Positions 7,297 to 50,910 of a stretch of 64,000 nucleotides of DNA are shown here, one piece after another. Where the stretch lies: positions 682,001 to 746,000 of the forward strand of contig NZ_JAKQZC010000001.1 in assembly GCF_023736115.1 (NCBI RefSeq). The letters are read 5' to 3'. Every line of letters begins with the position of its first letter. Within the stretch, counting starts at the first letter, position 1. The stretch comes from Salinicola avicenniae (GTDB taxonomy: Bacteria > Pseudomonadota > Gammaproteobacteria > Pseudomonadales > Halomonadaceae). The position numbers were made by a program, and so were the translations under genes. The notes beneath the pieces were generated by a model that worked only from the letters and a program-made list of their open reading frames with translations, searched no databases and had not been told where the DNA came from.

Positions 7297-7360
7297 CGGA
7301 TCTCACGAGGTACGGATTTTACGTGATGTGGATCTCACGTGGTACGGATCTCACGAAGAG
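7297..7360. repeat. Four tandem 16-bp degenerate repeats
   Basis: Four abutting 16-bp units begin at 7297, 7313, 7329 and 7345: CGGATCTCACGAGGTA, CGGATTTTACGTGATG, TGGATCTCACGTGGTA and CGGATCTCACGAAGAG. They fill the gap between two convergent genes, and the last unit contains the stop codon of the deacetylase-like gene (7351-7353). Confidence 0.85.
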
Positions 7361-8328
7361 AGATTGCCTAGCAGGCGGTCGAACAGTAGCCCGGGACTGT
7401 TGGCCAGCGGCTGCGTGATGGTGAAGCGCGGCAGCAGGGGGCGCTCCGCCGGCAGCGACAGCCACCCGGGCTGACGAGTCAGCACGTGATCGAGCCCCAG
7501 TCTGGCAATCAGGCGGCCCAGAGATTCGGCATCGCTGATCGCCTCTTCGTCGCAGGCGGCGACCGGCAGTGGCGACTCGCAGAGAGCTTGTAGACGTTGG
7601 TGATCATGCGGGATGCGTTGTGAGGCGGCGTCGGCATCTCGCGGCAGCAGGCTGCCGAAGCGCAGCAGACCGCCCTGCTCGAGCCGCCGTACGCTGAAAG
7701 TGTCGAGCGCCTGGTCGGCGAGGCCAGAGGCGGGAAGCAGCGTTGTCGCCAGGGCGTCGAGCGTCTTGACGGCGATCTCGCTGAAGGGCGTCAGGTAGTT
7801 GAGTATCGTCTGGCTGTAGCGGGCGTCGCGCGCCGCGACCGGCGGTGGCGCGGGCAAGCCGGCATCGCCGAAGGCGTCATCCACGGGCCCGGCCGATGTT
7901 CTTTGCCACAGTGCCTCACCCAGCACGGCTTGCCAGGGCGCCCGGAAACGCGGTGCGGCAAGCGGCGCGAGAAAGATGCTGGCAGGAAGGGCGCGGCGCT
8001 CCAGCGTCGGTGCCACCTGATGGTTGAGATCCTGCCAGCCGCCATCGAAGGTCAGCGCGATACGCGGGCGCGCATCGTGATGGAGCTGCAGTGCGCTCTC
8101 CAAGCTGACGATCTGCGCGCTCTCGCTCAGGCTGTCCAGCAGCTGCGCGAAGCTGTCAGGCCCTAAACACCAGCCGGCGCGATGCGGCAAGCGTGCCTCG
8201 GCTTCGTCATCGAGTACGCGCTGCAGGGCCAGCACGGCACTGCGTCCCCACAGAGGCTCATTCACGTTGAGACGCCAATGCCCACGCAGGCGCTGCACGA
8301 CAGCCTGAGGGCCTTCCAGTTTGGGCAT
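7351..8328 (-). CDS. Polysaccharide deacetylase-like protein with an altered metal motif
   Basis: A 325-residue protein. RIALTFDGGWQDLNHQVAPTL at about 89-109, followed by ALPASIFLA, aligns with the NodB homology motif 1 (usually TFDDG) and the strand after it. The first Asp (D95, normally the base) is kept, but the second, metal-binding Asp is Gly96, and no clear HxxxH motif 2 follows. Metal-dependent deacetylation is therefore doubtful. No signal peptide is visible. The start at 8328 has AAGGAG upstream. It is divergent from glnA, and its 3' end is formed by a tandem repeat. Confidence 0.65.
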   Translation of the reverse strand: MPKLEGPQAVVQRLRGHWRLNVNEPLWGRSAVLALQRVLDDEAEARLPHRAGWCLGPDSFAQLLDSLSESAQIVSLESALQLHHDARPRIALTFDGGWQDLNHQVAPTLERRALPASIFLAPLAAPRFRAPWQAVLGEALWQRTSAGPVDDAFGDAGLPAPPPVAARDARYSQTILNYLTPFSEIAVKTLDALATTLLPASGLADQALDTFSVRRLEQGGLLRFGSLLPRDADAASQRIPHDHQRLQALCESPLPVAACDEEAISDAESLGRLIARLGLDHVLTRQPGWLSLPAERPLLPRFTITQPLANSPGLLFDRLLGNLSS

Positions 8329-8463
8329 GGGCGAACTCCTTGCGCTGTCTCGGACCCGTTCGCGTTGGCGAGTCGGATTGACAGTATCCGCACCCGGCGC
8401 GGTCGGGGCAAAGACTCATTGATCGGCAAGTGTGGTTTATCTTGGTGCAAAGGGGATGTTTTT

Positions 8464-8480
8464 CGCCCCTTTTTGGTGCT
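8464..8480 (+). promoter_or_regulatory. NtrC-like enhancer site upstream of glnA
   Basis: CGCCCCTTTTTGGTGCT matches 10 of 13 defined positions of the enteric NtrC site TGCACC-N4-TGGTGCA, with GC.CC and TGGTGC intact. It lies about 130 bp above the sigma-54 promoter, a normal enhancer distance. A perfect right half (TTGGTGCA, 8442-8449) lies 20 bp further upstream and may be a second weaker site. Confidence 0.65.
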
Positions 8481-8609
8481 TTGCGATGCCAGGCGAGAAA
8501 GGTTTGGCGTTCAATCGGTAAACAAATTGTCGGTAGTACCACGCTGTTAGGAAAAAATAAGCTTTCAACTCATGAGGTTATTACCTTGCCCCAATGTCGT
8601 GCCTCATTT

Positions 8610-8625
8610 TGGCACATCCTATGCA
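8610..8625 (+). promoter_or_regulatory. Sigma-54 (RpoN) promoter of glnA
   Basis: TGGCACATCCTATGCA has GG and GC separated by exactly 10 bases, close to the consensus TGGCAC-N5-TTGCA. It is placed about 125 bp before the glnA ATG. With NtrC-like sites above and ntrBC below, it explains nitrogen-limited induction of glnA. Confidence 0.8.
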
Positions 8626-8748
8626 TTGTCATGGAAAAACGGCGTGCGCGTGGGCAAGGCCTTCGACCCATGCTAAAACGATGCATGCTACAAAGCGGTG
8701 TTGGATATTCGCCAACGAATCGAGCCATGGCTCACAGTGGAGGACAAC

Positions 8749-10155
8749 ATGTCTGAGAAAACCCTCGCCCTTATTGAGGAACACGACGTCAAGTGGGTAG
8801 ACCTGCGCTTTACCGATACCAAGGGCAAGGAGCAGCACGTCACGATCCCGGCCAGCGCCGTCGATACAGAGTTCTTTGAAGATGGTCAGATGTTCGACGG
8901 TTCTTCGATCGAAGGCTGGAAGGGCATCAACGAATCCGACATGATCCTGCGTCCGGAAGATGGCACCGCCTTCCTCGACCCGTTCACCGAAGACGCCACT
9001 CTGATCCTGCGCTGCGACATCATCGAGCCTTCCACCATGCAGGGCTACGAGCGCGATCCGCGTTCCATCGCCAAGCGTGCCGAGGCCTACCTGAACAGCA
9101 CCGGCCTGGGTGACACCGCCTTCTTCGGTCCGGAGCCCGAGTTCTTCATCTTCGACGAAGTCCACTTCAAGTCCGACATCGAAGGCTCGATGTACAAGAT
9201 CTCTTCCGAGGAAGGGGCCTGGGCGACCGATCGTCAGTTCGAAGGTGGCAACTTGGCGCACCGTCCGCGCGTCAAGGGTGGCTACTTCCCGGTACCGCCG
9301 GTCGACAGCTTCCACGACATCCGTAGCGCAATGTGCAACACGCTGCAGGCGATCGGCCAGGGCGTCGAAGTGCATCACCACGAAGTGGCGAACGCAGGCC
9401 AGAACGAGATCGGCGTCAAGTTCAACACGCTGGTCAAGAAGGCCGACGAAGTTCAGGAGATGAAGTACGTCATCCACAACGTCGCCCACGCCTACGGCAA
9501 GACCGCGACCTTCATGCCCAAGCCGCTGGTTGGCGATAACGGTTCCGGCATGCACGTCCACCAGTCCTTCTGGAAAGACGGTACCAACCAGTTCGCGGGC
9601 GACGAGTACGCGGGCCTGTCGGAGATGGCGCTCTACTACATCGGCGGCATCATCAAGCATGCGCGTGCCCTGAACGCCTTCACCAACGCCTCGACCAACT
9701 CGTACAAGCGTCTGGTCCCGGGCTTCGAAGCCCCGGTCATGCTCGCCTACAGCGCGCGTAACCGTTCCGCTTCCATCCGTATCCCGTACACCGCCAGCCC
9801 GAAAGGCAAGCGTGTCGAGGCGCGTTTCCCCGACCCGACGGCCAACCCGTACCTGGCCTTCGCGGCGATGCTGATGGCCGGTATCGACGGCATCAAGAAC
9901 AAGATTCATCCTGGCGACGCCATGGACAAGAATCTATACGACCTGCCGCCGGAAGAAGGCAAGAAGATCCCGACGGTCGCCAACAGCCTGGATCAGGCGC
10001 TGGAAGCGCTCGACGCCGATCGTGCCTTCCTGACCGAAGGCGGTGTCTTCACCGACAGCATGATCGATGCCTATATCGAGCTGAAGGGTGAAGACGTCGA
10101 GCGCCTGCGTCTGGCTACGCATCCGGTCGAGTTCGAGCTGTACTACAGCGTCTGA
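8749..10155 (+). CDS. glnA: Type I glutamine synthetase
   Basis: A 468-residue enzyme, the normal length for GSI-beta, which makes glutamine from glutamate, ammonia and ATP. Visible signatures are [24 protein letters not shown], the [19 protein letters not shown] loop and [10 protein letters not shown]. The adenylylation Tyr is residue 397 in [10 protein letters not shown], so activity should be controlled by GlnE. The start at 8749 gives [18 protein letters not shown] and has GTGGAGG upstream; an upstream in-frame ATG extends past the family N-terminus. It is followed by its own terminator and then the DUF4124 gene and ntrBC. Confidence 0.98.
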
Positions 10156-17171: not shown

Positions 17172-18035
17172 GTGACGACCCCATCGCAGCATGATCTACG
17201 CAACGCCTTTCGTGAACTGCTCGCCAGCGAGCAGTGCTACTACACCGCCTCGGTCTTCGATCCGATGTCGGCGCGCATCGCCGCCGATCTCGACTTCGAG
17301 GTCGGCATCCTCGGCGGCTCGGTCGCCTCCCTGCAGGTTTTGGCGGCCCCCGACTTCGCGCTCATTACGCTGAGCGAGTTCGTCGAGCAGGCGACGCGCA
17401 TCGGCCGTGTCGCCCGCTTGCCGGTGATCGCCGACGCCGACCACGGCTACGGCAACGCGCTCAACGTCATGCGTACCGTGACCGAACTCGAGCGGGCGGG
17501 CGTCGCGGCGCTGACCATCGAAGACACGCTGCTGCCGGCCCAGTACGGCCACAAGTCCACCGACCTCATCCCGGTCGAAGAGGGCGTCGGCAAGATGCGT
17601 GCGGCGCTGGAAGCGCGCATCGACCCGGCGCTGTCGATCGTCGCGCGGACCAACGCCGGTCAGCTCGACGACGACGCGGCCGTGGCGCGTATCCGGGCCT
17701 ATCAGGCTGCCGGCGTCGATGCTATCTGTCTGGTCGGCGTGCGCGACTTCGCTCATCTCGAAACGCTTGCCTCCGTGCTCACGGTGCCGCTGATGCTGGT
17801 CACCTACGATAACCCGGCGCTGCGCGACCGGGCGCGGCTGGCCGCGCTCGGCGTGCGTATCGTGGTCAACGGCCATGCAGCTTACTTCGCGGCGATCAAG
17901 GCAACCTACGACTGCCTGCGGGAACAGCGCGATATCGCCGCGCATGACCTCGATGCCTCGCAGCTCTCCACGCGCTACTCCACCCTCGAGGAGTATCGGA
18001 TCTGGGCGCGTGAGTATATGGATGTGAAAGAGTAG
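17172..18035 (+). CDS. Oxaloacetate decarboxylase of the PEP mutase/isocitrate lyase superfamily (PA4872 type)
   Basis: A 287-residue protein, the same length as P. aeruginosa PA4872, and nearly collinear with what is remembered of that sequence ([91 protein letters not shown]). Family members decarboxylate oxaloacetate to pyruvate using a divalent metal; the DADHGYG and ED motifs supply ligands. It acts in the cytoplasm. The start at 17172 has AGGAGATTTTC upstream. It is a single gene, followed by a degenerate repeat. Confidence 0.9.
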
Positions 18036-18092
18036 GTAGGGACGTCGATAGAGTCGGTAGAGACGTCAATGCGTCGATAGGGACGTGAAGCG
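18032..18092. repeat. Three degenerate 20-21-bp tandem repeats
   Basis: Three units of the form T(A/C)G(G/A)TAG(G/A)GACGT. The GACGT core occurs at 18041, 18062 and 18082. They start at the stop codon region of the preceding gene and run toward dgt. Confidence 0.65.
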
Positions 18093-21804: not shown

Positions 21805-21978
21805 CTGGTTTGGGCACCATCAGGGCGAATTGTCTTGTCGGACTTTGCCGTTCGGTCGGTGCGCTCGGCACGTGTCGGCGTCTTCCTACGACGATCGCCC
21901 GGACGGGCCGCTGGCCGGGGGCGTGCTACGCTAGATTTGTCGGTAGCAATGCTCGCCGCGAAGGACGCATGTCAAAAA

Positions 21979-22042
21979 GTGCGCTTGTCGAGAAGAGCAC
22001 TTGTCGAGAACGGCACTGGTCGAGAACAGTACTTGTTGAGAA
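21979..22042. repeat. Four tandem 16-bp degenerate repeats before the symporter start
   Basis: Abutting units start at 21979, 21995, 22011 and 22027: GTGCGCTTGTCGAGAA, GAGCACTTGTCGAGAA, CGGCACTGGTCGAGAA and CAGTACTTGTTGAGAA. The array ends 21 bp before the GTG start of the sodium:solute symporter, next to its ribosome site. The rest of the 311-bp gap (21753-22063) holds the BCCT terminator and nothing else recognised. Confidence 0.88.
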
Positions 22043-22063
22043 CAACAATGCGAGGACAGGGAT

Positions 22064-23689
22064 GTGGGCGCTTTCACGTGGCTGGATACCGTCGTTCTGA
22101 TTGTCTATGTGCTGGGCATTGCCTGGGTCGGGGCGCGTTTCGGCAAGGATCAGGAGAGTACGCAGGATTACTTCCTCGGTGGCCGCAAGATCCCCGGCTG
22201 GGCGATCGGGTTGTCGGTGATGGCGACGCAGGCCAGCGCGATCACCTTCATCGGCGCGCCCGGCTGGGGCTTCGAGGGCGGGCTCGAACGGCTCGCGGTC
22301 TTTATCAACGTGCCCCTGGCGATGGCGGTGCTGATCGTGGTGCTGGTGCCGATCTTCCATCGCGCCGGTATCTACAGTATCTACGAGCTGCTCGAACGCC
22401 GCTTCGGCCCCGGCACCCGGTCGCTGGCGGCGCTGCTGTTCCTCGTCGCGCGCGGCCTGGCGACCGGCGTCGTGCTCTACGCGCCGGCGCTGGTGCTGTC
22501 GGTGGTGACCGGCTGGGACGTCAACCTGACCATCGTGCTGATGGCGGTCATTGCCGTCAGCTATACCGTCCTGGGGGGGATCAGTGCGGTCATCTGGACC
22601 GACGTGATCCAGATGTTCGTACTCTGGTTCGGCGCCATCCTGAGCATGGTGCTGATGGTCTCGAGCCTGCCCGGCGGCTGGAGCGACGTGTTCGCCTACG
22701 GTGCGGCCAACGGCAGTTTCGATGCCATCGACCTGTCGCTCGACCCCACCGTCACCTATTCGCTGTGGGCCGGTCTGATCGGCGGGGTGGTCATGCACAT
22801 GGCCTACTTCGGCACCGACCAGAGCCAGATTCAGCGCGTGCTGACCAGCCCTTCGATCGCCGAGGGTCAGCGGTCACTGCTGATCGGCGGCTACCTGCTG
22901 GTGCCACAGATGCTGCTGTTCCTGTTCATCGGTGTGATGCTGGCGACCTACTATCAGCAGCATGGGTTGAGTGCGCCGGAGAACCTCAACGAGCTGTTCC
23001 CGCGCTACGTGGTCGAGGCCTTCCCCATCGGCGTGACCGGCCTGGTGATCGCCGGGGTCTTCGCGGCCGCCATGTCGAGCCTGGACTCCGCGCTCAATTC
23101 GCTCTCGGCGGTGACCGTACGCGACTTCTATGCGCGCTATCTGAAGCCGGAAGCCGACGAGCACCACTATCTCAAGGCGTCACGCTGGGCGACGGTGTTC
23201 TGGGGCCTCTACGCCACGCTGTTCGCCTTCTTTGCCGGCAACCTGGGGCCGGTGATCGAGGCGGTCAATCGTATCGGCTCGTGGTTCTACGGCGCGCTGC
23301 TCGGCGCGTTCCTGCTGGCCATTCTCAGCCATCGCAGCAACGGCCGCGGCGCGGCCACCGGTATCGTGCTGGGCATGGCGTCGGTCTGGGCAGTGTCACT
23401 GACCGAGATCTCCTGGCTTTACCAGAATGCCGTCGGTCTGGGCGTTTCGGTGGTGGCGGGTTATCTGGTCAGTCTGACCGCACCAGCGCCTGACCGGGCG
23501 CAGCTGGCGGACGTGGCGATCGACGAGCAGGCGCCGGACATGCAGGCGATCCTCAAGGGGCGCCGTGGACAGGCGGCCGTCGTCGGGCGCGACGCGCGCC
23601 TGACACGTCGCCGCTGTCTCGGGTTGCTGCTCTGGTTCGTCATCTCGCTGGTTGTGCTGGCGTGGCTGCAGGGGTGGGCCAATGCGTAG
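22064..23689 (+). CDS. Sodium:solute symporter (SSS) family protein
   Basis: A 541-residue membrane protein with about 13 helices. The SSS features are DYFLGGRKIPGWAIGLSVMATQASAITFIGAPGWGFEGG near the N-terminus, the sodium-site helix with RGLATGVVLYAPALVLS, and FGTDQSQIQRVLTSPS followed by AGVFAAAMSSLDSALNSLSAVTVRDFY. The substrate is not identifiable; related members carry sugars, pantothenate, proline or sialic acid. The start is the GTG at 22064, with GAGGACAGGG just upstream; the nearby ATG at 22048 is out of frame. Its stop overlaps the next gene by 8 bp. Confidence 0.88.
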   Translation: MGAFTWLDTVVLIVYVLGIAWVGARFGKDQESTQDYFLGGRKIPGWAIGLSVMATQASAITFIGAPGWGFEGGLERLAVFINVPLAMAVLIVVLVPIFHRAGIYSIYELLERRFGPGTRSLAALLFLVARGLATGVVLYAPALVLSVVTGWDVNLTIVLMAVIAVSYTVLGGISAVIWTDVIQMFVLWFGAILSMVLMVSSLPGGWSDVFAYGAANGSFDAIDLSLDPTVTYSLWAGLIGGVVMHMAYFGTDQSQIQRVLTSPSIAEGQRSLLIGGYLLVPQMLLFLFIGVMLATYYQQHGLSAPENLNELFPRYVVEAFPIGVTGLVIAGVFAAAMSSLDSALNSLSAVTVRDFYARYLKPEADEHHYLKASRWATVFWGLYATLFAFFAGNLGPVIEAVNRIGSWFYGALLGAFLLAILSHRSNGRGAATGIVLGMASVWAVSLTEISWLYQNAVGLGVSVVAGYLVSLTAPAPDRAQLADVAIDEQAPDMQAILKGRRGQAAVVGRDARLTRRRCLGLLLWFVISLVVLAWLQGWANA

Positions 23690-28365: not shown

Positions 28366-28779
28366 TCAGCGAGCTTCCGCGCCGGTGGTGACGACCGGAA
28401 TGTCGGGCTCGCCGGGATCGTCGACGCCGAACACCGAGACGGTCTCCCGATTGAGATAGCGGATGCGGCCGTCGGCCCGAATCTGGGCGTCGAGACGATA
28501 GAGATTGTCACGATCGATGGCGGCGGGGGCGTACTGCAGCGTGACCGGAATCGGCAGCTGAGAGAGGTTTTCGTAGTGGCTGCTGGCCAGCACGTCACCG
28601 GTGCTGAAGTCTGTCAGCTGGATATCCAGCGTCGCGTTCTCGGGCAGGGCGACCGGCTGCTCCGAGACCACGCGGGCAGCAAGCGTCTCGAACTGCGGCC
28701 CGCTGGCGCAGCCGGCGAGCGCGGCCAGCGTCAGCAGGGCGACGACGAGACGATAGCGGCGGAGACTAGCGGACGGCAT
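28366..28779 (-). CDS. YbaY/YscW-family lipoprotein
   Basis: A 137-residue lipoprotein. The signal peptide ends in a lipobox (LAALAGCAS) with Cys at about residue 25. The mature part (ENATLDIQLTDFSTGDVLAS, then PIPVTLQYAPAAIDRDNLYRLDAQI) is the YbaY-like beta-sandwich (PF09619). Members are outer-membrane or periplasmic; their function is poorly known. The start at 28779 is set by the signal peptide; upstream codons are in repeat DNA. A 16-bp tandem repeat lies 25 bp before the ATG. Confidence 0.8.
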   Translation of the reverse strand: MPSASLRRYRLVVALLTLAALAGCASGPQFETLAARVVSEQPVALPENATLDIQLTDFSTGDVLASSHYENLSQLPIPVTLQYAPAAIDRDNLYRLDAQIRADGRIRYLNRETVSVFGVDDPGEPDIPVVTTGAEAR

Positions 28780-28803
28780 GGCAGACTTCCTCGATGGCGC
28801 GGC

Positions 28804-28851
28804 GATAAATAGGCGAGACGGTAAACAGGTCCGACGATAAATAGACGCGAC
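28804..28851. repeat. Three tandem 16-bp degenerate repeats before the YbaY-like gene
   Basis: Abutting units: GATAAATAGGCGAGAC (28804), GGTAAACAGGTCCGAC (28820) and GATAAATAGACGCGAC (28836). The array is 25 bp upstream of the lipoprotein ATG on the minus strand. Confidence 0.8.
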
Positions 28852-32293: not shown

Positions 32294-33325
32294 TCAATCC
32301 GTGTTGACGATCAGCTCGTAGACGTCGCGCAGCCCCATCTCATCGATCACCTTGCCCAGCGGCTCGGCGACCATGGCCTGCATGCGTTCGCGATCCATCG
32401 GGTAGAAGGTCGCGCCCTCGTCTTTCAGTTTCTCGCGGGATTCCGTATCGAGCCGGATCTGCAGGTTGCGGGCGTAGGTCTCGCTCTCGTCGGCGGCCGC
32501 CTGCACGGCCTGCTGCTCGTCCGGCGACAGCGTGTTCCAGGTGTCGTCCGAGATCGTCAGCAGGCGCACGGTGATGTCGTGCCCCGAGAGCCCGATATAG
32601 GGCGCGACCTCGTGGAATCGCATGCGGTAGATCCACTCCGCTTCGTTGAGCAGGCCGTCGATGGCGCCCAGTTGCAGCCCGGTGTAGATCTCCTTGTAGG
32701 CCATGACCGTCGGTTGGGTGCCGAGCGCCGCCCAGGCGGTGATGGTCGGCCGGGTCGGGTTGGTGCGCAGCTTCATGCCCTGCAGGTCGTCGAGACTCTC
32801 GAGCGGCCGGGTGCTGACGATCTGTCGGGTACTGCCGCCGTAATAGGCGAGCACCTTGACCCCGGTTTCGTCCTCGATGCGCGCGGCGATCTCGCGCCCC
32901 GCCTCGCCGTCGAGCACGTGGCGCCAGTGATCGATATCGCGATAGAGAAAGGGAATCGAGAAGATGCTGGCCGTGTGCGAGAACTCCGAGATCAGCCCCG
33001 GGTTGACGATCGAGAAGTCGAGCGCGCCGGCTGTCTGCTGTTCGAACATCTCGGTTTCGTGGCCGAGCACGCCGTTGCTGTAGAGACCGACCGTCAGCTC
33101 GCCGTCGGTCTTCTCCTCCAGCAGTGCCTTGAAGCGCGCCGCGCTCAGGTGATAGGCGGTCTCTTCGGTGGCGCCGTGGGCGAAGATCAGCTCGCGGGCC
33201 GACGCGGTGGGGGCCGCAAGCGTCACGCAAGCCAGCGTCAGCGTGGCCAGCAGCGCGAGGCCAAGGCCGCGAACGTTCAAGGGGCGAGCGTTCGAGGGGC
33301 GAGCGTTCGAGGGACGATAGCTCAT
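32294..33325 (-). CDS. dctP: TRAP transporter periplasmic binding protein DctP
   Basis: A 343-residue DctP-family binding protein. The signal peptide is unusual: MSYR followed by PSNAR, PSNAR and PLNVR before the hydrophobic core, with cleavage near ASA-RE (about residue 44). The mature part has IFAHGATEETAYHLSAARF, NPGLISEFSH, and LRTNPTRPTI with the Arg that usually binds the substrate carboxylate. The substrate is probably an organic or sugar acid, given the LacI regulator and ghrB beside it. Its start overlaps lacI by 4 bp, so lacI may be translated with it. Confidence 0.92.
   Translation of the reverse strand: MSYRPSNARPSNARPLNVRGLGLALLATLTLACVTLAAPTASARELIFAHGATEETAYHLSAARFKALLEEKTDGELTVGLYSNGVLGHETEMFEQQTAGALDFSIVNPGLISEFSHTASIFSIPFLYRDIDHWRHVLDGEAGREIAARIEDETGVKVLAYYGGSTRQIVSTRPLESLDDLQGMKLRTNPTRPTITAWAALGTQPTVMAYKEIYTGLQLGAIDGLLNEAEWIYRMRFHEVAPYIGLSGHDITVRLLTISDDTWNTLSPDEQQAVQAAADESETYARNLQIRLDTESREKLKDEGATFYPMDRERMQAMVAEPLGKVIDEMGLRDVYELIVNTD
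33271..33315. repeat. In-frame 15-bp tandem repeat inside the dctP signal peptide
   Basis: Three units (GAACGTTCAAGGGGC, GAGCGTTCGAGGGGC, GAGCGTTCGAGGGAC at 33271, 33286 and 33301). On the coding strand they encode the pentapeptides PSNAR, PSNAR and PLNVR in the n-region of the signal peptide. A unit of 15 keeps the reading frame. Confidence 0.85.
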
Positions 33326-34428
33326 GAGGACTCCTGTTCGCGCCGGGGCGAGGTCGATGTGGTGTCGCGAATCTCGAGGGTGGCCGGCAGCACGATGCGG
33401 GCGGGGGCGCCCTGCGGGTCCGCGATGCGCGCCAGGGCCAGCTCGGCGGCGGCGCGACCGATCGCCTCGGGATGCGTGGCGACGCTGGTCAGCGCAGGGT
33501 GGGTGAGCGCGGCTTCGTCGATGTCGTCGATACCGACGACCGCACAGTCGAGTCCGGGGCGCAGGCCGCGGCGCTGCAGTGCCAGTATCGCGCCGAGCGC
33601 GACCAGGTCGTTGTGACAGATCAGCGCGGTGGGCGCGGCGGCTTCGTCCAGCAGGGCCAGCGTTCGCTGGAGGCCTGCGCCGCGCGTCAGCTCGCCGCGC
33701 AGGACGCGCGATTCAACCTCGAGCCCGGCAGCCTGCATGGCCTGGCGATAGCCATCGAGCCGCTCCCGGTCGGCCGAGTGGTCACTGTCGCCCGCGAGCA
33801 GCGTGATATGGCGATGCCCCAGGCTCACCAGATGTGCCACCGCATCGTGTACGCCTTGGCGGATATCGGCGCCGACGTAGTCGCCCTGCGGTGTCTCGCC
33901 GAGGTGACGCATCAGCTGGATGCAGGGCAGCTGCCAGGTGGCCAGGGTGTCGATCAAGGCCGGCGGTGTCTCTTCGGCAGGGCAGAGCAGCAGGGCATCC
34001 ACGTGCTGTTCGCGCATGCGCGTCAGGAAGCGTTCCTGGCGCGCGGGGCTGTCGCCGCTGTTGGCGAGGAAGGGAACATAGCCGGCCGCCTGCAGGACAT
34101 CGTCGATGCCGGCGACCATGGCGCCGAAGAAGGGGTTGGCGATGTCGTGGACGACCACGCCGACCGTGGCGGTACGGGCGCTGCGCAGCATGGCGGCGCC
34201 ACGGTTGTAGACGTAACCGAGCGCTTGGGCGCTGGCCTGCACGCGGGTCCGCGTCGTCTCCGCGACCAGCGGGCTCTCTTGCATGACCAGCGAGACGGTC
34301 GATCGCGAGACCCCCGCGTGCGCGGCGATCTCCTTGAGCGTGACCCGGGGCGCGCCCGGCCCGGCAGGGCCGGACGGCGGCGAGCGGTGGTCGAAGTGGT
34401 CTTCCTGCCTCATCTCGATATCCGTCAT
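33322..34428 (-). CDS. LacI-family transcriptional regulator
   Basis: A 368-residue repressor. After a 27-residue N-terminal tail comes the LacI helix-turn-helix VTLKEIAAHAGVSRSTVSLVM, the hinge-linked domain (TATVGVVVHDIANPFFGAMVAGIDDVL) and the sugar-binding core ending DDIDEAALTHPALTSV. It should bind the perfect palindrome at 34428-34443 and control its own operon with dctPQM. The ATG at 34428 touches that palindrome. The ATG at 34413 (MRQEDHF), with GGATATCGAG before it, may be the real start. Confidence 0.92.
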   Translation of the reverse strand: MTDIEMRQEDHFDHRSPPSGPAGPGAPRVTLKEIAAHAGVSRSTVSLVMQESPLVAETTRTRVQASAQALGYVYNRGAAMLRSARTATVGVVVHDIANPFFGAMVAGIDDVLQAAGYVPFLANSGDSPARQERFLTRMREQHVDALLLCPAEETPPALIDTLATWQLPCIQLMRHLGETPQGDYVGADIRQGVHDAVAHLVSLGHRHITLLAGDSDHSADRERLDGYRQAMQAAGLEVESRVLRGELTRGAGLQRTLALLDEAAAPTALICHNDLVALGAILALQRRGLRPGLDCAVVGIDDIDEAALTHPALTSVATHPEAIGRAAAELALARIADPQGAPARIVLPATLEIRDTTSTSPRREQESS

Positions 34429-34585: not shown

Positions 34586-34627
34586 GCCGCCAGGAGATAG
34601 CGGCCAAGAGACAGCCGCCAGGAGACA
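34586..34627. repeat. Three tandem 14-bp repeats after ghrB
   Basis: Abutting units: GCCGCCAGGAGATA (34586), GCGGCCAAGAGACA (34600) and GCCGCCAGGAGACA (34614). They lie 14 bp beyond the ghrB stop, in the lacI-ghrB gap. Confidence 0.8.
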
Positions 34628-34641
34628 GGGGATGGCTGGGA

Positions 34642-35628
34642 TCAGGTGGCCGTTTCGTTGCGTACCTCGGGGTTGACCGGGCTGATCGGTGCCTTGCCGT
34701 CGAGCGCCAGCAGGATGTTGTCGACCGCGCGTTGCGCCATGGCCGTGCGCGTCTCATGAGTGGCAGAGCCGATATGCGGCAGCGCGACCACGTTCGCCAT
34801 CTGCGGCAGCGGCGAGTCGGCGGGCAAAGGTTCCTTCTCGAACACGTCGAGGCCGGCGGCGCGGATCTGGCCACGCTTGAGGGCGTCGATCATTGCCGGC
34901 TCGTCGACCACCTGGCCGCGCGACAGGTTGATGAAGATGGCGCTCTCCTTCATGCGTTCGAACTCGCGGGCGCCGATCAGCCGACGCGTCTCGTCCGTCA
35001 GCGGCACGATGGCACAGACGAAATCGGATTCGCGCAGCAGTTCGTCGAACTCGCAGCGACGTGCACCGAGTTCGCGTTCGATCTCCGGCTTGGGCGAGGC
35101 ATTGGAGTAGAGCACCTGCATGCCGAAGCCGAGCGCTCCGCGCCGGGCGATCGCCTGCCCGATACGACCGAAGCCGACCATGCCGAGCGTCTTGCCATGC
35201 ACGTCGCTGCCGAACTGCTCGGGGCCGATGCTCGCTTTCCAGTCGCCGCGCTTGACGAAGTCGGCCAGCTCGACGACCCGACGCGCACTGGCCATGATCA
35301 GCGAGAAGCCAGTGTCGGCGGTGGTTTCGGTCAGCACGTCCGGGGTGTTGCAGAGCAGGATGCCGCGGCGGGTCAGTTCGTCGACGGGGTAGTTGTCCAC
35401 GCCGACGGAGATGCTGGCGATCGCCTCGAGTTTGGGTGCGGCGTCGAGCAGTACCGGGGTGATGTTGACGCCGGCGCCGATCAGGCCGTGGGCCTCGGCC
35501 AGCGCTTCGCGGAACGCCGGATCATCGGCGGAGGAAAGCTTGCCGAAGTAGTCGACGTGGTACCGGCTGCGTAGCTGCTCGAGCTGCTGCTCGTCGAGAC
35601 GGCGATAGGCCAGTATGCGTTTGCTCAT
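34642..35628 (-). CDS. ghrB: D-2-hydroxyacid dehydrogenase, GhrB-like (glyoxylate/hydroxypyruvate/2-ketogluconate reductase)
   Basis: A 328-residue NAD(P)-dependent reductase. The Rossmann motif is GMVGFGRIGQAIA. Catalytic residues are Arg in NLSRGQVVDE, Glu in GLDVFEKEPL and His in LPHIGSATHETR. The overall run closely follows E. coli GhrB, which reduces glyoxylate, hydroxypyruvate and 2-ketogluconate. It sits above the LacI/TRAP operon on the same strand, with a 213-bp gap, which suggests a shared substrate such as a keto sugar acid; this is inference. Confidence 0.85.
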   Translation of the reverse strand: MSKRILAYRRLDEQQLEQLRSRYHVDYFGKLSSADDPAFREALAEAHGLIGAGVNITPVLLDAAPKLEAIASISVGVDNYPVDELTRRGILLCNTPDVLTETTADTGFSLIMASARRVVELADFVKRGDWKASIGPEQFGSDVHGKTLGMVGFGRIGQAIARRGALGFGMQVLYSNASPKPEIERELGARRCEFDELLRESDFVCAIVPLTDETRRLIGAREFERMKESAIFINLSRGQVVDEPAMIDALKRGQIRAAGLDVFEKEPLPADSPLPQMANVVALPHIGSATHETRTAMAQRAVDNILLALDGKAPISPVNPEVRNETAT

Positions 35629-37472: not shown

Positions 37473-37590
37473 GATGACTCTCCTGCGGTGACTGTTGACA
37501 AGGGTAGTTACTCATACGCTGTCCGGCCGTTGCTGGATGCCTTGGCGTTCTGACCATGGCGGGGTCTATGTTGAGGCAACGTTGCTCATG

Positions 37591-37618
37591 GATGAGACAG
37601 TCAGGATGAGACAGTGAC
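37591..37618. repeat. Two tandem 14-bp repeats touching the quiC-like start codon
   Basis: GATGAGACAGTCAG (37591) and GATGAGACAGTGAC (37605). The second unit ends on the base before the ATG at 37619. Confidence 0.75.
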
Positions 37619-38443
37619 ATGAAAAGATCGATGGCCACGCTCTGTTTGAGCGGTGAACTGGATGCCAGGCTGGAAGCCATTGCGCGAGCCGAATTCGGCG
37701 GCGTGGAAATCTTCGTCGACGACCTGGACGGCAGCGTGCTGACGGCAAGGGAGATCGGCGAGCGCTGCCGGGATCTCGGACTCTCGGTGGTCGCACTGCA
37801 GCCGTTTCGGGATGCCGAGGGGCTTCCGGCGCCGGCTCATCGCCAGAAGCTCGAGGCGGCGCGCCGACAGTTCGAGACGCTCGCGACACTGGGCGGCGAC
37901 TTCCTGCTCCTGTGCAGCAACACGCGCGAAGATGCCAGTGAAGCGTCCGATGACATTGCCGCCTCGCTTCACGACTTCGCTGCGCTGGCGACGGAACACG
38001 GCATGCGTATCGGCTACGAGGCGCTGGCCTGGGGGCGACACGTCGACGACTACCGTGAGGCCTGGCGGCTCGTCCGGCTGGTCGATCATCCGGCACTGTC
38101 GGTCGTGTTGGACAGCTATCACGTTCTCGCCCGCGATCTGGATCTACAGACGCTCGCGGATATCCCGGCCGAGCGTATCGGGCTGGTGCAGCTGGCTGAT
38201 GCGCCGCGGCCGCCGGCCAACGCCGACAGGCACGCGTTGCAGTCGCTCAGCCGCCATCGCCGCGCCTTCCCGGGCCAGGGCGAACTGGCGATCGGCGCGT
38301 TTCTCGAGGCGGTCGGGCGGACAGGCTATGCGGGGCCAATCTCGCTGGAGATCTTCAGCGACATTCTCGGCGTGATGCCGACCGGCATGTCCGCGCTGGA
38401 AGGCAAGCGGACGCTGGACGAGGCGCTGGCCGAGCGGCCCTGA
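37619..38443 (+). CDS. quiC: Single-domain 3-dehydroshikimate dehydratase (QuiC-type TIM barrel)
   Basis: A 274-residue AP-endonuclease-2-like TIM barrel. It follows the N-terminal domain of Pseudomonas QuiC (RSMATLCLSGELDARLEAIA, EFGGVEIF, LQPFRDAEG, LLCSN, RIGYEALAWGRHVDDY). The metal-site residues Glu134, Asp165 and Gln191 fall at the same numbers as reported for QuiC1, with Glu244 in LEIF as the fourth. It would convert 3-dehydroshikimate to protocatechuate. The C-terminal dioxygenase-like domain of QuiC1 is absent. The MHS transporter of shikimate type 1.2 kb away supports the role. No clear Shine-Dalgarno is present; the repeat occupies that place. Confidence 0.78.
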   Translation: MKRSMATLCLSGELDARLEAIARAEFGGVEIFVDDLDGSVLTAREIGERCRDLGLSVVALQPFRDAEGLPAPAHRQKLEAARRQFETLATLGGDFLLLCSNTREDASEASDDIAASLHDFAALATEHGMRIGYEALAWGRHVDDYREAWRLVRLVDHPALSVVLDSYHVLARDLDLQTLADIPAERIGLVQLADAPRPPANADRHALQSLSRHRRAFPGQGELAIGAFLEAVGRTGYAGPISLEIFSDILGVMPTGMSALEGKRTLDEALAERP

Positions 38444-45867: not shown

Positions 45868-47373
45868 ATGTTCGACTTTCTGATCGATGGATTCGGTGTC
45901 GCGCTGACGCCGCTCAACCTCGGACTGGCCTTTCTCGGGGCGCTGCTCGGGACGCTTTTCGGTGCGTTGCCGGGCATCGGCCCGATCAACGGCATCGCGA
46001 TTCTGATGCCGCTCGCCTACACGCTGGGGCTGCCGGCGGAGTCGGCGTTGATCCTGCTGGCCGGTATCTATACCGGTTCCGAATATGGCGGGCGCATGTC
46101 GAGTATCCTGCTCAACGTGCCCGGCGATGCAGGCGCGGTCATGACCACGCTGGATGGGCATCCGCTGGCTAAGAAAGGGCTTGCCGGACCGGCGCTGGGG
46201 CTCTCCGCGGTGAGTTCGTTCATCGGCGCCACCGTGGCCATTATCGGGCTGACGCTGTTCGCGCCGCTGCTGGCGGCCGTGGCGGTCAAGTTCGGTCCGG
46301 CGGAGTTCTTCGCGCTGATGATCTTCGCCTTCGCCTCGATGTCGGCGATGATGGGCAAGGACCCGGTCAAGACACTGATCGGTGCCGTGCTCGGCGTACT
46401 CATCTCCACCGTCGGCGTCGATTCCGGCACCGGCGTGCTGCGTTTCACCTTCGACATGCCGGAGCTTTACGACGGCATCGATTTCGTCGTCATGATCATC
46501 GGCCTCTTTGCCGTCAGCGAGATCCTGCTGATGCTCGAGCATGCCTTCCGCCACGACGCCGAGGGCGAGATGGCCCCGATCGGCCGGGTGATGGTGAAGC
46601 TTTCCGAAGTGCTCTACTGCAAGTGGTCGATTCTGCGCTCGAGCGTGATCGGCTTCGTCATCGGCATCCTGCCGGGCACGGGCGCTTCGGTCGCCAGTGC
46701 CGTGGCCTACACCACCGAAAAGCGCCTGACCGATCACGACAACAGCTTCGGCACCGGCAACATGCGCGGTCTGGCCGCGCCGGAAGCCGCCAACAACGCC
46801 TCCGCCGCCGGCTCTTTCGTGCCCATGCTGACGTTGGGTATTCCCGGGTCTGGCACCACGGCGATCCTGCTCGGGGCGCTGATGCTTTACAACATCAATC
46901 CTGGTCCGATGATGTTCCGCGAACAGCCGGTCGTGGTCGGGGGGCTGATCGCCTCGCTCTACATCGGCAACGTGGTGCTGTTGCTCCTCAACCTGCCGCT
47001 GGCCGGCGTCTTCGCGCGCGTGCTGCAGGTGCCGCGCTGGCTGCTGGTGCCTAGCGTGGCGATTCTGGCTTTCGTCGGCGTCTATCAACTTCACTCCGAT
47101 CTGATGGCGATCTACCTGATGCTCGTCATTGGCGTGTTCGGCTACCTGCTGCGCAAGTTCGGGTTCTCGCTGGCGCCGGTGGTGCTGGGCTTCGTGCTCG
47201 GCGGGCTCATGGAGGAGAATCTGCGCCGGGCGCTGTCTATCAGCGGTGGCGACGTCGCCATCCTGTGGCAGTCCGCGCTCTCCGTCGGGCTCTGGATCGC
47301 CGCGGCGCTGGTGGTACTGCTGCCGCTGGCGGCGGGACGGCTCAAGGCGAAGCTGATGGAGAAAGCCGCGTGA
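45868..47373 (+). CDS. tctA: Tripartite tricarboxylate transporter large subunit TctA
   Basis: A 501-residue pore protein with about 11 helices. Signatures are [73 protein letters not shown] and [30 protein letters not shown]. It moves tricarboxylates with cations together with TctB and TctC. Confidence 0.94.
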
Positions 47374-47431: not shown

Positions 47432-47511
47432 GGCGCTCGGGCTAAGGTAGGGCGCTTGGGCTAAGGTAGACAGTAGCGCGGGTCGCGGCGGCACCCGACG
47501 AGCACCCGACA
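47432..47511. repeat. Two short direct repeats in the tctA downstream gap
   Basis: A 19-bp pair, GGCGCTCGGGCTAAGGTAG (47432) and GGCGCTTGGGCTAAGGTAG (47451), is followed by a 10-11-bp pair with GCACCCGAC at 47491 and 47502. The second pair ends 17 bp before the next gene. Confidence 0.75.
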
Positions 47512-47528
47512 GGCAGGAGGCAAACGGC

Positions 47529-48257
47529 ATGCGTGACGATAGCGACGAGCGGGTCCGCCAGCAGCTGGCACCGGCGGGTGAGCTCAGGGTGGCCATCAAC
47601 TACGGCAATCCGGTGCTGGCCCAGCGTGGCGAGGACGGCGAGCCGAGCGGCGTCTCGGCGGTGCTGGCGCGAGCGCTGGCCGCCGAGCTCGATGTCGGTA
47701 TCACCTTCGCGACCTATGCCGGTGCCGGCGATGTCGTTGCCGCCGTTGCCGAGGATGCCTGGCGGCTTGCCTTCCTGGCGCGCGATCCGGTACGCGCGGA
47801 GACGATCCACTTCACCGAGCCCTACGTGCTGATCGAGGGCACCTATCTGGTACCCGCGTCGGCGCCGTTCCAGGCGGTCGACGAGCTGGACCGGGGTGAT
47901 GTGCAGATCGCCGTGGGCAAGGGGGCCGCCTACGATCTCTATCTTAGCCGGGCCCTGGAGCAGGCGAGTCTGGTACGGGCGCCGACGTCCGCCGCCGCCA
48001 TCGAGCTGTTCGTCGAGCGCGGGCTCTCGGCGGCGGCCGGCGTGCGTCAGCCGCTGGAGCGTTACGCCGCCGCGCACCCCGCTTACCGGGTACTGCCGGG
48101 GCGCTTTACGGCGATCGAGCAGTGCATGGCGCTGCCCGTCGCCCACGCCGAGGCGGCCGGCTATGTGGCCGACTTTCTGGCGCGCATGAAGCGTGAAGGG
48201 CTTATCACCCGAGCGCTCGAGGCGAGCGGTCAGTCGTCGTCGCTGGCCGCGCCGTAA
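47529..48257 (+). CDS. Family 3 solute-binding-fold protein without signal peptide
   Basis: A 242-residue protein of the amino-acid-binding (SBP family 3) fold: GELRVAINYGNPVLAQ, then PSGVSAVLARALAAELD, FTEPYVLIEGTYLVP and VGKGAAYDLYLSRAL. The N-terminus (MRDDSDERVRQQLAP) is hydrophilic, so no export is expected. It may be a cytoplasmic ligand sensor or enzyme of the cyclohexadienyl-dehydratase-like kind. The start at 47529 has AGGAGGCAAACGGC upstream. There is no transporter partner. Confidence 0.75.
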   Translation: MRDDSDERVRQQLAPAGELRVAINYGNPVLAQRGEDGEPSGVSAVLARALAAELDVGITFATYAGAGDVVAAVAEDAWRLAFLARDPVRAETIHFTEPYVLIEGTYLVPASAPFQAVDELDRGDVQIAVGKGAAYDLYLSRALEQASLVRAPTSAAAIELFVERGLSAAAGVRQPLERYAAAHPAYRVLPGRFTAIEQCMALPVAHAEAAGYVADFLARMKREGLITRALEASGQSSSLAAP

Positions 48258-48510: not shown

Positions 48511-48522
48511 CGAATGACGAAG

Positions 48523-48547
48523 AACCGGCTTACGAGCCGGTTTTTTT
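48523..48547 (+). terminator. tRNA-Ser terminator
   Basis: An 8-bp stem, AACCGGCT (48523-48530) with 48535-48542, closes a TACG loop and runs into seven T residues, 13 bp after the tRNA. Confidence 0.93.
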
Positions 48548-48696
48548 GTGTCTGGCGTCAGCGTCCTCGGATGTCAGCGCGATGATCCGGCGTCGATTCG
48601 GGGGGGATCGCGTTCCTGGCGCGGCGTAAGACGACCGCAAGGCTCACCGCGCGCGAGGTGTTTACCGCGAAGGCCTCCTCCACCGCCTGACCTTGG

Positions 48697-49626
48697 CTAG
48701 TCGATGCGCCGACGGCTCGGTATTACCTCCAGCACGGCGGCGGCGATCACCAGTACCGCGCCGATGACCTGAATCATCGCCAGCGGTTCGCCGGCCAACA
48801 GCGCCGCCGACAGCACCCCGACGAGAACCTCGCTCATCATCAGGATGCCGAGTCGCGCCGGTGGCAAGTGGCGTGCTGCCCAGACCACGATAGCCAGCGA
48901 GGCCGACCACCACAGGCCGGCGGCGGCGGCGATCCAGGCCGCCGCCCGCCACCACGTCTCGGCCGGTGGCAGACCCGGCCAGGCGGAGAGGAAGGGGGCA
49001 AGCAGCAGTGCCGCCAGCAGCGCTCCGACGGCGAACAGGAAGCTGCCTTCGCCCGGCCCCAGCGTGTTGTGCGCGCGCATGCCACTGGAAGCGATGGCCC
49101 ACAGCGCCCCGGAGGCCAGCCCGAGCCAATCGCCGATGCCATGCGGCAGGGGCGTCCCGCCATGGCTGCCCATGACCAGCCCGAGCCCCCCGAGGCCGAG
49201 CGCGATGACCGCCAGGCGACGCCCGGTCAGCGGCCAGCGCCACCAGAAGCGTTCGATCAGGGTGCTCCAGACCGGTGTCAGGTAGAACAGCAGTATGACG
49301 ACCGCGACCTGGCCGTGAACCAGCCCGACCGAATAACACATGAAGGCGGCGCCCCCGAGCACCACCGAGGCGAACCCCAGCGGCGAGACACGCCGCAGGC
49401 GTCCGCGATGGCGAATCGCCCATGGCGAAAGCATCACGCAGGCGGTGGCGGCGATGATCAGCGACCCCCATACGCCGCCCAGCGAGAGTGCTTCGAGACG
49501 GCGGATCGGCCACCAGTAGAGCCCCCAGAGCGCCCCCGCGAGCAGGATGCCGAGGGCGGCCAGCTGCGCGCTGCTGAGGGAGGGTGTGTCCGGTGTCTGG
49601 ATATCGGGCGTTGCCTTCCCTGGCAC
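48697..49626 (-). CDS. DMT-superfamily (EamA) transporter
   Basis: A 309-residue membrane protein with ten helices in two EamA repeats (LAALGILLAGALWGLYWWPIRRLE; GIGDWLGLASGALWAIASSGM). FYLTPVWSTLIERFWW and LMMSEVLVGVLSAALLAGEPLAMIQVIGAVLVI are typical of the fourth and ninth helices. The substrate is unknown; relatives export amino acids or metabolites. It lies 29 bp downstream of pgk and may be in that transcript. Confidence 0.9.
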   Translation of the reverse strand: MPGKATPDIQTPDTPSLSSAQLAALGILLAGALWGLYWWPIRRLEALSLGGVWGSLIIAATACVMLSPWAIRHRGRLRRVSPLGFASVVLGGAAFMCYSVGLVHGQVAVVILLFYLTPVWSTLIERFWWRWPLTGRRLAVIALGLGGLGLVMGSHGGTPLPHGIGDWLGLASGALWAIASSGMRAHNTLGPGEGSFLFAVGALLAALLLAPFLSAWPGLPPAETWWRAAAWIAAAAGLWWSASLAIVVWAARHLPPARLGILMMSEVLVGVLSAALLAGEPLAMIQVIGAVLVIAAAVLEVIPSRRRID

Positions 49627-49655
49627 GCAACCTCCTTGTCGACGAGCGCCGGGTA

Positions 49656-50819
49656 TCAGCGGGCGGCCTGTTCGAGCGCGGCCACGGCGGGCAGGGTCTT
49701 GCCCTCGACGTATTCGAGGAAGGCACCGCCGCCGGTGGAGATGTAGGAGACCTGATCGGCGATGCCGTACTTGTCGATCGCGGCCAGAGTGTCACCACCG
49801 CCGGCGATGGAGAATGCGGGGCTCTCGGCGATGGCTTTCGAGATGACCTCGGTGCCCTTGCCGAACTGATCGATCTCGAACACCCCGACCGGCCCGTTCC
49901 ACAGAATGGTACCGGCGTTCTTGAGCAGGCCGGCGAGGTCGGCGGCGGTCTGCGGGCCGATATCGAGGATCATCTCGTCGTCCGCGATCTGGTCGACCGG
50001 CTTGACCGTGGCCTCGGCGGACTCCGAGAACTCGGTCGCGACGACCACGTCGGTGGGCAGCGGGATCTTCACCTTGGCCATCAGCTCCTTGGCCTTGTCG
50101 ACCAGATCGGCCTCGAAGAGCGATTTGCCGACGTTGTAGCCGGCCGCGGCGATAAAGGTGTTGGCGATGCCGCCGCCGACGATCAGCTGATCGCACTTCT
50201 CGGACAGCGCATAGAGCACGTCGAGCTTGGTCGAGACCTTGGACCCGCCGACGATGGCGGCCATCGGGCGCTTGGGTGCGCTCAGCGCCTTCTCGAGCGC
50301 TTCGAGCTCACCGGCCAGCAGGGGCCCGGCACAAGCCTGAGGGGCGAAGCGGGCGACGCCGTGGGTCGAGGCCTGGGCACGGTGGGCGGTTCCGAAGGCA
50401 TCCATGACGTAGACATCGCAGAGCGCGGCGTAGCTCTTGGCGAGGGTGTCGTCGTCTTTCTTCTCGCCGCTGTTGTAGCGCACGTTCTCCAGCAGCACGA
50501 CTTCGCCCTCGTCGATGTCGAGTGCGCCGTCGAGATAGTCCTTCTCCAGCCGTACCGGCTTGCCAAGCAGGCCGGCGAGATGTTCGGCCACCGGCGCCAG
50601 GGTGAACTCGTCGGCCGGCTCGCCTTCGGTGGGGCGGCCGAGGTGGCTCATCAGCATGACGCGGGCGCCGGCCTTCAGGGCCGTCTGGATAGTCGGCAGG
50701 CTGGCGCGGATGCGCGCGTCGCTGGTGACCTTGCCATCCTTGACGGGTACGTTGAGGTCCTCGCGGATCAGCACGCGTTTACCGGAGAGATCCAGCTCGG
50801 TCATCTTGAGTACGTTCAT
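49656..50819 (-). CDS. pgk: Phosphoglycerate kinase
   Basis: A 387-residue glycolytic enzyme converting 1,3-bisphosphoglycerate and ADP to 3-phosphoglycerate and ATP. Signatures are [64 protein letters not shown] and GGGDTLAAI. It lies downstream of epd on the same strand, the common epd-pgk order. A 5-unit 15-bp repeat occupies its leader, ending 17 bp before the ATG. Confidence 0.98.
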
Positions 50820-50835
50820 CAGATCCTTTCCTTGA

Positions 50836-50910
50836 GAGTGCTCGAAAGCTGAGTGCTCGAAATGTCAGTGCTCGAAAACTGAGTGCTAGCAAGCGGTGTG
50901 CTCGACCACC
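50836..50910. repeat. Five tandem 15-bp degenerate repeats in the pgk leader
   Basis: Units start at 50836, 50851, 50866, 50881 and 50896, with consensus GAGTGCTCGAAAxxT. The first three are closest (GAGTGCTCGAAAGCT, GAGTGCTCGAAATGT, CAGTGCTCGAAAACT) and the last two more diverged. The array sits 17 bp upstream of the pgk ATG in the epd-pgk gap. Confidence 0.88.

What the first reader, a model, noticed from the sequence alone, without database searches (positions are those of the whole stretch)
7297..50910. A scattered family of locus-specific 14-16-bp degenerate tandem repeats next to gene starts and ends
At 7297 (4x16), 21979 (4x16), 28804 (3x16), 33271 (3x15), 34586 (3x14), 37591 (2x14) and 50836 (5x15), abutting repeats share unit length but not sequence. 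Longer-unit relatives are at 2597 (2x19), 18032 (3x20-21) and 47432 (2x19). Most are within about 25 bp of a start codon or a stop codon. Similar unit length with unrelated sequence suggests a process that duplicates local DNA, such as replication slippage with a preferred length or an unknown enzyme, rather than copies of one mobile element. They may tune translation or transcript ends.
Basis: seen in the sequence. Interest (0 to 1): 0.8.

Follow-up and report, generated by a model that had tools for sequence, protein, structure and literature searches.

The report
Home-grown 14-16-bp repeats in gene leaders
A salt-loving bacterium (Salinicola) has copied short stretches of its own DNA, about 14 to 20 letters long, head to tail in the gaps next to genes; at the sites that could be compared, related species still carry a single copy, so the repeats arise on the spot and are a fast-changing kind of bacterial minisatellite rather than a mobile element.

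Summary
Eight of the ten listed arrays are real; 37591 is a weak 2x14 pair and 2597 is mainly an inverted repeat. In 89.8 kb of this genome's intergenic DNA TRF finds 38 arrays with units of 12-22 bp, against 0.4 per dinucleotide shuffle. Arrays of three or more copies peak at 14-16 bp: 22 of 38 with units 9-22 bp, in three Salinicola genomes. Units are locus-specific. Origin is seen at three sites. Before the SSF symporter, 12 of 18 genomes have a 38-42-nt leader with one unit; this genome has 137 nt built of that unit, and long leaders most simply arose at least twice. At one leader of a relative, and less strictly in the DctP N-terminus, other species keep one copy. So these are locally born, quickly diverging minisatellites; start codons are enriched, stops are not. 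Salinicola is 7-20 times richer than the other sampled sets except one other family, which is also rich. Ku is absent from rich genomes. Slipped-strand duplication is inferred; the cause of the 14-16-bp step and any function are unproven.

The parts
7297..7355 (.). 16-bp x3.7 array (CGGATCTCACGTGGTA) between convergent genes 6675-7289(+, nucleotidyltransferase) and 7351-8328(-, no Pfam match)
   Evidence: TRF score 76; genes; not compared with relatives
18029..18086 (.). 20-21-bp x2.8 array starting over the stop codon of the PEP-mutase gene (17172-18035,+); in 5 of 16 relatives whose gap was read the gap holds 7-bp arrays instead
21984..22044 (+). 16-bp x3.8 clean part of the array filling the leader of the SSF symporter gene 22064-23689; the unit corresponds to the single-copy leader segment TTGTCGATAACAAAAA of relatives
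21927..21932 (+). -10-like hexamer TACGCT (motif judged by eye); 137 nt from the start codon here, 38-42 nt in 12 of 18 genomes
28796..28851 (-). 16-bp x3.5 array, 16 nt before the start of the YscW-like lipoprotein gene (28366-28779,-)
   Evidence: not present in the 16 relatives whose gap was read, one of which (L211) has a 21-bp pair of its own
33269..33317 (-). 15-bp x3.3 in-frame array in the N-terminus of the DctP-type binding protein (32294-33325,-): MSY-RPSNA-RPSNA-RPLNV-RGLG; four relatives have one related copy (MSHRPSAHRGF and similar)
34586..34628 (-). 14-bp x3.1 array 13 nt after the stop of the 2-hydroxyacid dehydrogenase gene (34642-35628,-), upstream of the LacI-type gene 33322-34428
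37590..37617 (+). 2x14 pair (13 of 14) directly before the AP_endonuc_2-family gene 37619-38443
   Evidence: not listed by TRF; not compared with relatives
47432..47469 (.). 19-bp x2.0 duplication (94%) between the TctA gene (45868-47373) and a solute-binding-protein gene (47529-48257)
   Evidence: not present in the 10 relatives whose gap was read, one of which (L258) has a 15-bp x2.8 array of its own
50836..50905 (-). 15-bp x4.7 array in the leader of pgk (49656-50819,-), ending 16 nt before its start codon, downstream of gap (50964-52004,-)

Best explanation
The arrays are minisatellites born on the spot. Shown at the sites that could be compared: a single-copy segment of about 13-17 bp in a leader (or, less strictly, in frame in a coding stretch) is present head to tail in several copies in one lineage while relatives keep one copy; copy number differs between close species; neighbouring copies differ by substitutions and small length changes. 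Shown at the SSF site: the promoter-like and ribosome-binding-like sequence on either side is kept, so growth is confined between them. Inferred: the first duplication is a slipped-strand (replication or gap-repair) event, later copies arise by slippage or unequal exchange between the repeats, and selection removes arrays from promoters and out-of-frame coding positions, which leaves leaders, spacers and multiples of 3 in genes. Inferred: a lineage-level difference in mutation or repair makes Salinicola rich in them and sets the 14-16-bp step.
For: SSF leader: -10-like hexamer to start codon is 38-42 nt in 12 of 18 genomes, with one GTCGATAACAA-type segment; 137 nt here, 144 in G021, 91, 102, 117 and 117 in the G004/G005/G022/G023 clade (in G023 the hexamer also matches at 162; I took the position shared with its clade), with different unit lengths (16, 17, 13). 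On a two-gene tree the simplest history has two or more gains. L063 leader: one copy in G004 and G023, three in G005, four in G022. DctP N-terminus: one related copy in G002, G006, G007, G010, three here, in frame (aligned by eye). L059 leader: TRF array in G005, G022 and G023 and two copies by eye in G004; copies 96% alike within G005 but different from the sisters. No shared motif between loci. Coding arrays of three or more copies with units 13-20 bp are six at 15 and one at 18, none at 14 or 16, in 0.90 Mb of Salinicola coding DNA (two of the six lie side by side in one gene); none at 15 in 1.22 Mb of other proteobacteria. Enrichment 3-25 nt before starts: 18 of 59 against 8.1.
Against: Slippage itself is not observed. 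Perfect duplications show 0-22 nt of flanking homology with no clear rule. An alignment scan of close species gave 22 well-flanked gaps of 5 nt or more out of 193, of which 1 intergenic (14 nt) and 2 neighbouring coding ones (12 nt) were tandem duplications, too few for a spectrum. For window arrays 18029, 28796, 34586, 47432 and 50836 the single-copy ancestor is not visible because the gaps do not align; 7297 and 37590 were not compared. In coding DNA 9- and 12-bp arrays (48 and 20) outnumber the 15-bp ones, also in other genomes, so the intergenic peak is not copied cleanly there. A 14-16-bp peak is not explained by slippage alone. Loss of Pol I 5' nuclease or ExoI is not the cause: both families are in 9 of 9 genomes tested.
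Confidence: 0.8

Rival explanations
1. A dedicated or unusual DNA-processing activity (a polymerase, primase or nuclease complex with a 14-16-nt footprint) makes the duplications in steps of fixed length.
For: Peak at 14-16 bp in intergenic arrays of three or more copies, with fewer at 9-13 bp where detection is not the limit; enrichment of 7-fold (TRF) to 20-fold (three or more copies) over other sampled sets; coding arrays at 15 bp in Salinicola and none in the comparison sets.
Against: G018, another family of the order, is also rich, so it is not genus-specific; G009, a Salinicola, has only 2 such arrays in 32.8 kb; coding 12-bp arrays outnumber 15-bp ones; no candidate gene was found; the step could be a physical limit of slipped loops.
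Confidence: 0.12
2. The arrays are functional regulatory sites (binding sites for an RNA- or DNA-binding protein, or spacers that tune translation) and are kept by selection.
For: 18 of 59 lie 3-25 nt before start codons against 8.1 expected; a published parallel, TAACTGA repeats upstream of start codons in Beggiatoaceae, was proposed to be regulatory (PMC4679880, abstract and section list seen).
Against: Units are unrelated between loci; absent or different in relatives at the same gene; near-start array RNA folds no differently from shuffles (mean z -0.09, n=23); stops show no enrichment.
Confidence: 0.07
3. Ku/LigD end joining of staggered breaks with fill-in duplicates the overhang.
For: Would give duplications with little homology and a length set by the overhang (general knowledge, no call).
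Against: No Ku (PF02735) match in this genome, G004, G005, G009 or G018, all array-bearing; 5 of 14 genomes searched have it.
Confidence: 0.02
4. Chance or an assembly artefact.
For: Short degenerate repeats below about 12 bp do occur by chance in shuffled DNA.
Against: 38 against 0.4 in shuffles; copies differ by substitutions; separate assemblies of relatives show related arrays at orthologous sites.
Confidence: 0.01

Closest known systems
Bacterial minisatellites / VNTR loci (used for MLVA typing)
   Same: Head-to-tail units of about 10-100 bp, copy number differing between relatives, sequence particular to each locus.
   Different: Here most arrays are degenerate, units peak at 14-16 bp, there is an excess directly before start codons, and a single-copy ancestor is seen in relatives at some sites. 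Strain-level variation was not testable.
TAACTGA heptamer direct repeats of Beggiatoaceae (MacGregor 2015, PMC4679880; abstract and section list seen)
   Same: Short tandem arrays, most of them a few nucleotides upstream of putative start codons, across many genes.
   Different: There one heptamer sequence is shared by the sites; here each site has its own unit, about twice as long.
Prokaryotic satellites surveyed by PMC6749651 (passages seen)
   Same: Tandem arrays with repeat length 10-200 nt; Burkholderia mallei and pseudomallei there have units of 12, 14 and 16 nt.
   Different: Those need at least four regular repeats, and the Burkholderia ones derive from CG-rich 6-8-nt microsatellites; the window's 14- and 16-bp units do not read as dimers of 7- or 8-mers (by eye).
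REP/BIME palindromic units and small dispersed repeats (definitions recalled; mentioned in PMC2884548 passages)
   Same: Short, intergenic, sometimes clustered.
   Different: Those are shared families dispersed over the genome; here no sharing between loci.

Membership tests
Bacterial minisatellite / VNTR | Head-to-tail tandem units of about 10-100 bp above chance | tested here: met
Bacterial minisatellite / VNTR | Copy number varies between related genomes at the same site | tested here: met
   1, 1, 3, 4 copies at L063:1700; SSF leader 38-144 nt; between species only
Bacterial minisatellite / VNTR | Copy number varies between strains of one species | not testable with these tools
   one genome per species held; nearest relatives of this genome 83-86% identical at the HD-domain gene
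Dispersed repeat family (REP/BIME, small dispersed repeats, TAACTGA type) | Same sequence at many loci | tested here: not met
   19 of 780 unit pairs share a 7-mer against 21.2 in shuffles; unit 12-mers occur 58 times outside their array against a rough 51.3 expected
Dispersed repeat family (REP/BIME, small dispersed repeats, TAACTGA type) | Units are palindromic or strongly folded (REP/BIME) | tested here: not met
   mean fold z -0.09 (n=23) for near-start arrays, -0.40 (n=42, read on the + strand) for the others, -0.33 for 80 control leaders
CRISPR array | Constant repeats split by unique spacers | tested here: not met
   copies abut; an array of CRISPR form lies elsewhere (L013)
Mobile element insertion | Unit sequence absent from the empty site | tested here: not met
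   a single copy of the unit is present in relatives at two leaders and a related one at the DctP N-terminus

The most novel reading that the evidence does not exclude
Salinicola, and at least one other family of its order, carry a lineage-level mutational process that duplicates DNA in steps of about one and a half helical turns (14-16 bp), lengthening gene leaders and, in multiples of three, protein N-termini; the step length is the mark of an as yet unnamed polymerase or repair complex.
Probability: 0.2. Interest if true: 0.7.

Novelty: new variant of a known kind. Interest (0 to 1): 0.45.

Why it matters
New minisatellites are seldom caught at birth. Here one gene's leader in 18 related genomes holds one unit in 12, and is lengthened by unit-like repeats in six (by 96 nt, or six 16-nt steps, in this genome), with promoter-like and ribosome-binding-like elements held in place. 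That gives a natural system for asking how tandem repeats start in bacteria, why the step is near 14-16 bp, and whether stepwise leader growth changes expression. The density difference between lineages makes the cause searchable by comparing repair genes.

Tried and rejected
Single shared motif or family: rejected. Ku end joining: rejected as a requirement, no Ku match in several array-rich genomes. Loss of Pol I 5' nuclease or of ExoI: rejected, both in 9 of 9 genomes. RNA-structure function: no signal. Arrays as copies of the first transcribed segment only: fits the SSF leader, but at the L063 leader and the DctP N-terminus I saw no promoter-like element by eye (no promoter tool was run), so not kept. 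Microhomology as a guide to mechanism: inconclusive. Indel spectrum from close species: too few well-flanked gaps (22 of 193). TRF alone overstates the lower edge of the length preference, because two-copy units of 12 bp or less cannot reach score 50; the lag scan shows some excess at 8-12 bp too, so the peak claim rests on arrays of three or more copies. Gene calls were home-made codon-usage calls, so distances to starts are approximate. Literature searches: in the open-access library, lists capped (for example 15 of 22, 15 of 111, 15 of 35 and 15 of 42 papers shown); no listed title or abstract start described this for Salinicola or Halomonas, which is not proof that it is unpublished.
Full report
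Where it is. The window is bases 682001-746000 of contig 3 of a 4.03-Mb genome. Its phosphoglycerate kinase is nearest to Salinicola species (90% to S. halophyticus and S. salarius), so the genome is a Salinicola or very close; at the HD-domain gene it is 83-86% identical to the 17 relatives of its genus searched.

The observation. Eight of the ten listed arrays are clear in TRF and by eye. 37591 is a 2x14 pair of 13/14 that TRF does not list; 2597 matches 15 of 19 and is mainly an inverted repeat. Window intergenic DNA gave 9 arrays of score 50 or more, which include a perfect hexamer and a perfect heptamer array; 100 dinucleotide shuffles gave 0.08 on average.

Genome scale. I took 596 kb of stretches from the same genome plus the window, 660 kb in all, called genes with a codon-usage script and left out a CRISPR-form array in L013. 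Intergenic DNA (segments of 40 bases or more, 89.8 kb) gave 38 arrays with units of 12-22 bp, against 0.4 (maximum 2) in 20 shuffles. A lag scan free of TRF gave the excess at 14-20 bp, a smaller relative excess at 8-12 bp and little above 20. Counting only arrays of three or more copies in this genome, G005 and G009 (157.8 kb intergenic), the counts at unit 9 to 22 were 2,2,2,2,1,8,6,8,2,2,0,2,0,1; eight shuffles gave 0.8 or fewer at each of these lengths. Twenty-two of 38 at 14-16 is p=1e-6 against a flat spectrum. By genome the p14-20 counts are 20, 6 and 2, so this genome carries most of the evidence.

Sequence. Units are not related between loci: pairs sharing 7-, 8- or 9-mers were 19, 3 and 1 of 780, against 21.2, 5.4 and 1.4 for shuffled units, and unit 12-mers recur outside their array 58 times against a rough 51.3 expected. 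Near-start arrays are not unusually structured RNAs; they are somewhat poorer in G+C than control leaders (0.52 against 0.60, same call).

Position. For 59 arrays (unit 12-22) in three genomes, 18 end 3-25 nt before a start codon against 8.1 by random placement in the same gaps (0 of 2000 placements reach it), while 18 lie within 25 nt of a stop against 16.0. Most of the near-start ones stop short of a Shine-Dalgarno-like stretch (by eye; one, in L019, overlaps the start codon). This may be tolerance (promoters and terminators cannot accept insertions) rather than a mutational target; I cannot separate the two.

Birth of the arrays. (a) SSF symporter leader, window 21927-22064. In 12 of 18 Salinicola genomes a -10-like hexamer sits 38-42 nt before the start codon, and the leader holds one GTCGATAACAA-type segment. 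Here the distance is 137 nt and the leader reads as 16-bp versions of that segment. In G021 it is 144 nt with 17-bp units, and in G004, G005, G022 and G023 91, 102, 117 and 117 nt with 13-bp units (TRF lists arrays in G021, G022 and G023, the other two by eye; G023 has a second hexamer match at 162). A tree of two genes puts the long leaders in two places (G000 with G021, support 0.58; and the four-genome clade, 1.00), so most simply two or more gains. (b) Leader at L063:1700-1742: one copy in G004 and G023, three in G005, four in G022, with flanks alignable throughout. (c) DctP N-terminus, window 33269-33317: four relatives read MSHRPSAHRGF or similar, this genome MSY-RPSNA-RPSNA-RPLNV-RGLG, in frame; two further relatives have an unrelated N-terminus. 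This alignment is by eye and weaker than (a) and (b). (d) For the arrays at 18029, 28796, 34586, 47432 and 50836 the orthologous gaps do not align, so the ancestor is not visible; 7297 and 37590 were not compared. In the 18029 gap 5 of 16 relatives read carry 7-bp arrays, which shows that the slot itself is prone to or tolerant of tandem repeats.

The nine G005 arrays looked up in G022, G023 and G004 came out as follows: one single-copy in two sisters (b); one shared by four species with copies alike within G005 (L059:12687); three shared with G022 (L063:5278, 17669, 18798), of which the first is the same length in all four species and so is old or not a repeat event; one 25x2 with no TRF array in the three relatives; one (L061:17090) not found in the two relatives read; two with no orthologous gap recovered.

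Coding DNA. Arrays of three or more copies with units 13-20 bp in 0.90 Mb of Salinicola coding DNA are six at 15 bp and one at 18, none at 14 or 16; 1.22 Mb of other proteobacterial coding DNA has none at 15. The p of 0.006 treats the six as independent, but two lie side by side in one gene (L084). This is what one process plus a reading-frame filter would leave; against a clean reading, 9- and 12-bp coding arrays are commoner (48 and 20) and occur in the comparison sets too (44 and 5, and 16 and 7).

Who has them. Arrays with units 14-20 bp and three or more copies per 10 kb intergenic: own genome 2.23, G005 1.70, G009 0.61, named Salinicola pgk loci 1.76; other Halomonadaceae 0.29, G017 0, other gamma- and zetaproteobacteria 0.06, but G018 (another family of the order) 1.13. 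Salinicola against the other three sets, G018 left out of the test: 31 in 174.8 kb against 2 in 221.9 kb. With TRF (units 13-22): 64 against 12. At matched pgk loci only, TRF gives 4 in 17.0 kb against 11 in 202.6 kb, p=0.025. The outgroups come mostly from one conserved locus, a weakness of the comparison.

Mechanism. Local duplication is shown at (a) and (b); slippage is inferred. Ku has no match in this genome, G004, G005, G009 or G018 (5 of 14 genomes have it), so Ku-dependent end joining is not required. Pol I 5' nuclease and ExoI families are present in 9 of 9 genomes. Flanking homology at 25 intergenic perfect duplications ranges from 0 to 22 nt, microsatellites and part third copies included, and does not decide. 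Known work on small tandem duplications (Pol alpha-primase at break ends in eukaryotes, PMC8355091, search listing with abstract start only) gives analogies, not tests. Roles of single-strand exonucleases in repeat stability are recalled, not read.

Comparison with what is known. These are bacterial minisatellites by definition. They differ from the TAACTGA repeats of Beggiatoaceae (PMC4679880, abstract and section list), which also sit before start codons but share one sequence. A survey of prokaryotic satellites (PMC6749651, passages) notes 12-, 14- and 16-nt units in Burkholderia derived from 6-8-nt microsatellites; the window's units do not read as such dimers. A study of small variable segments (PMC2884548, passages) scored only minisatellite motifs of 20 bp or more, so units like these fell below its cut. 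What seems new is the step near 14-16 bp, the lineage enrichment, and the visible single-copy ancestors; my searches (capped lists, titles and abstract starts) did not turn up this description.

Noticed in passing
L013:12971-15460 (about 4.5-7 kb left of the window): CRISPR-form array with a 28-nt repeat GTGCGCTGCCGCCCAGGCAGCTCAGAAA at 60-bp period; excluded from the array counts.
   Followed up: no
56858-57028: Perfect hexamer array TCGACC x8.8 and perfect heptamer array CTGTCCT x13 side by side before gene 57290-58348 (+), which has no Pfam match; possibly a length-variable upstream region.
   Followed up: no
L223, L224, L225, L229, L232: gap between PEP mutase and HD-domain genes: Five of 16 relatives read (G001, G009, G008, G010, G021) carry 7-bp arrays of up to 15 copies in this gap, several right after a -10-like element (by eye); the close pair G001/G008 has 14.9 and 11.9 copies, with an N inside the G001 array.
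   Followed up: partly
Similar-looking inserts sit just before pgk in several Salinicola (by eye).
   Followed up: partly
2593-2630: Inverted repeat GGATCAGAAAG-A-CTTTCTGGGATC upstream of a BPD_transp_2 permease gene (1585-2583,-), operator-like.
   Followed up: no
61251-61417: FMN riboswitch on the minus strand.
   Followed up: no
G018 stretches L085-L094: An unnamed member of another family of the order, 46.7% GC, is also rich in 14-20-bp arrays, so the trait is patchy rather than unique to Salinicola.
   Followed up: partly
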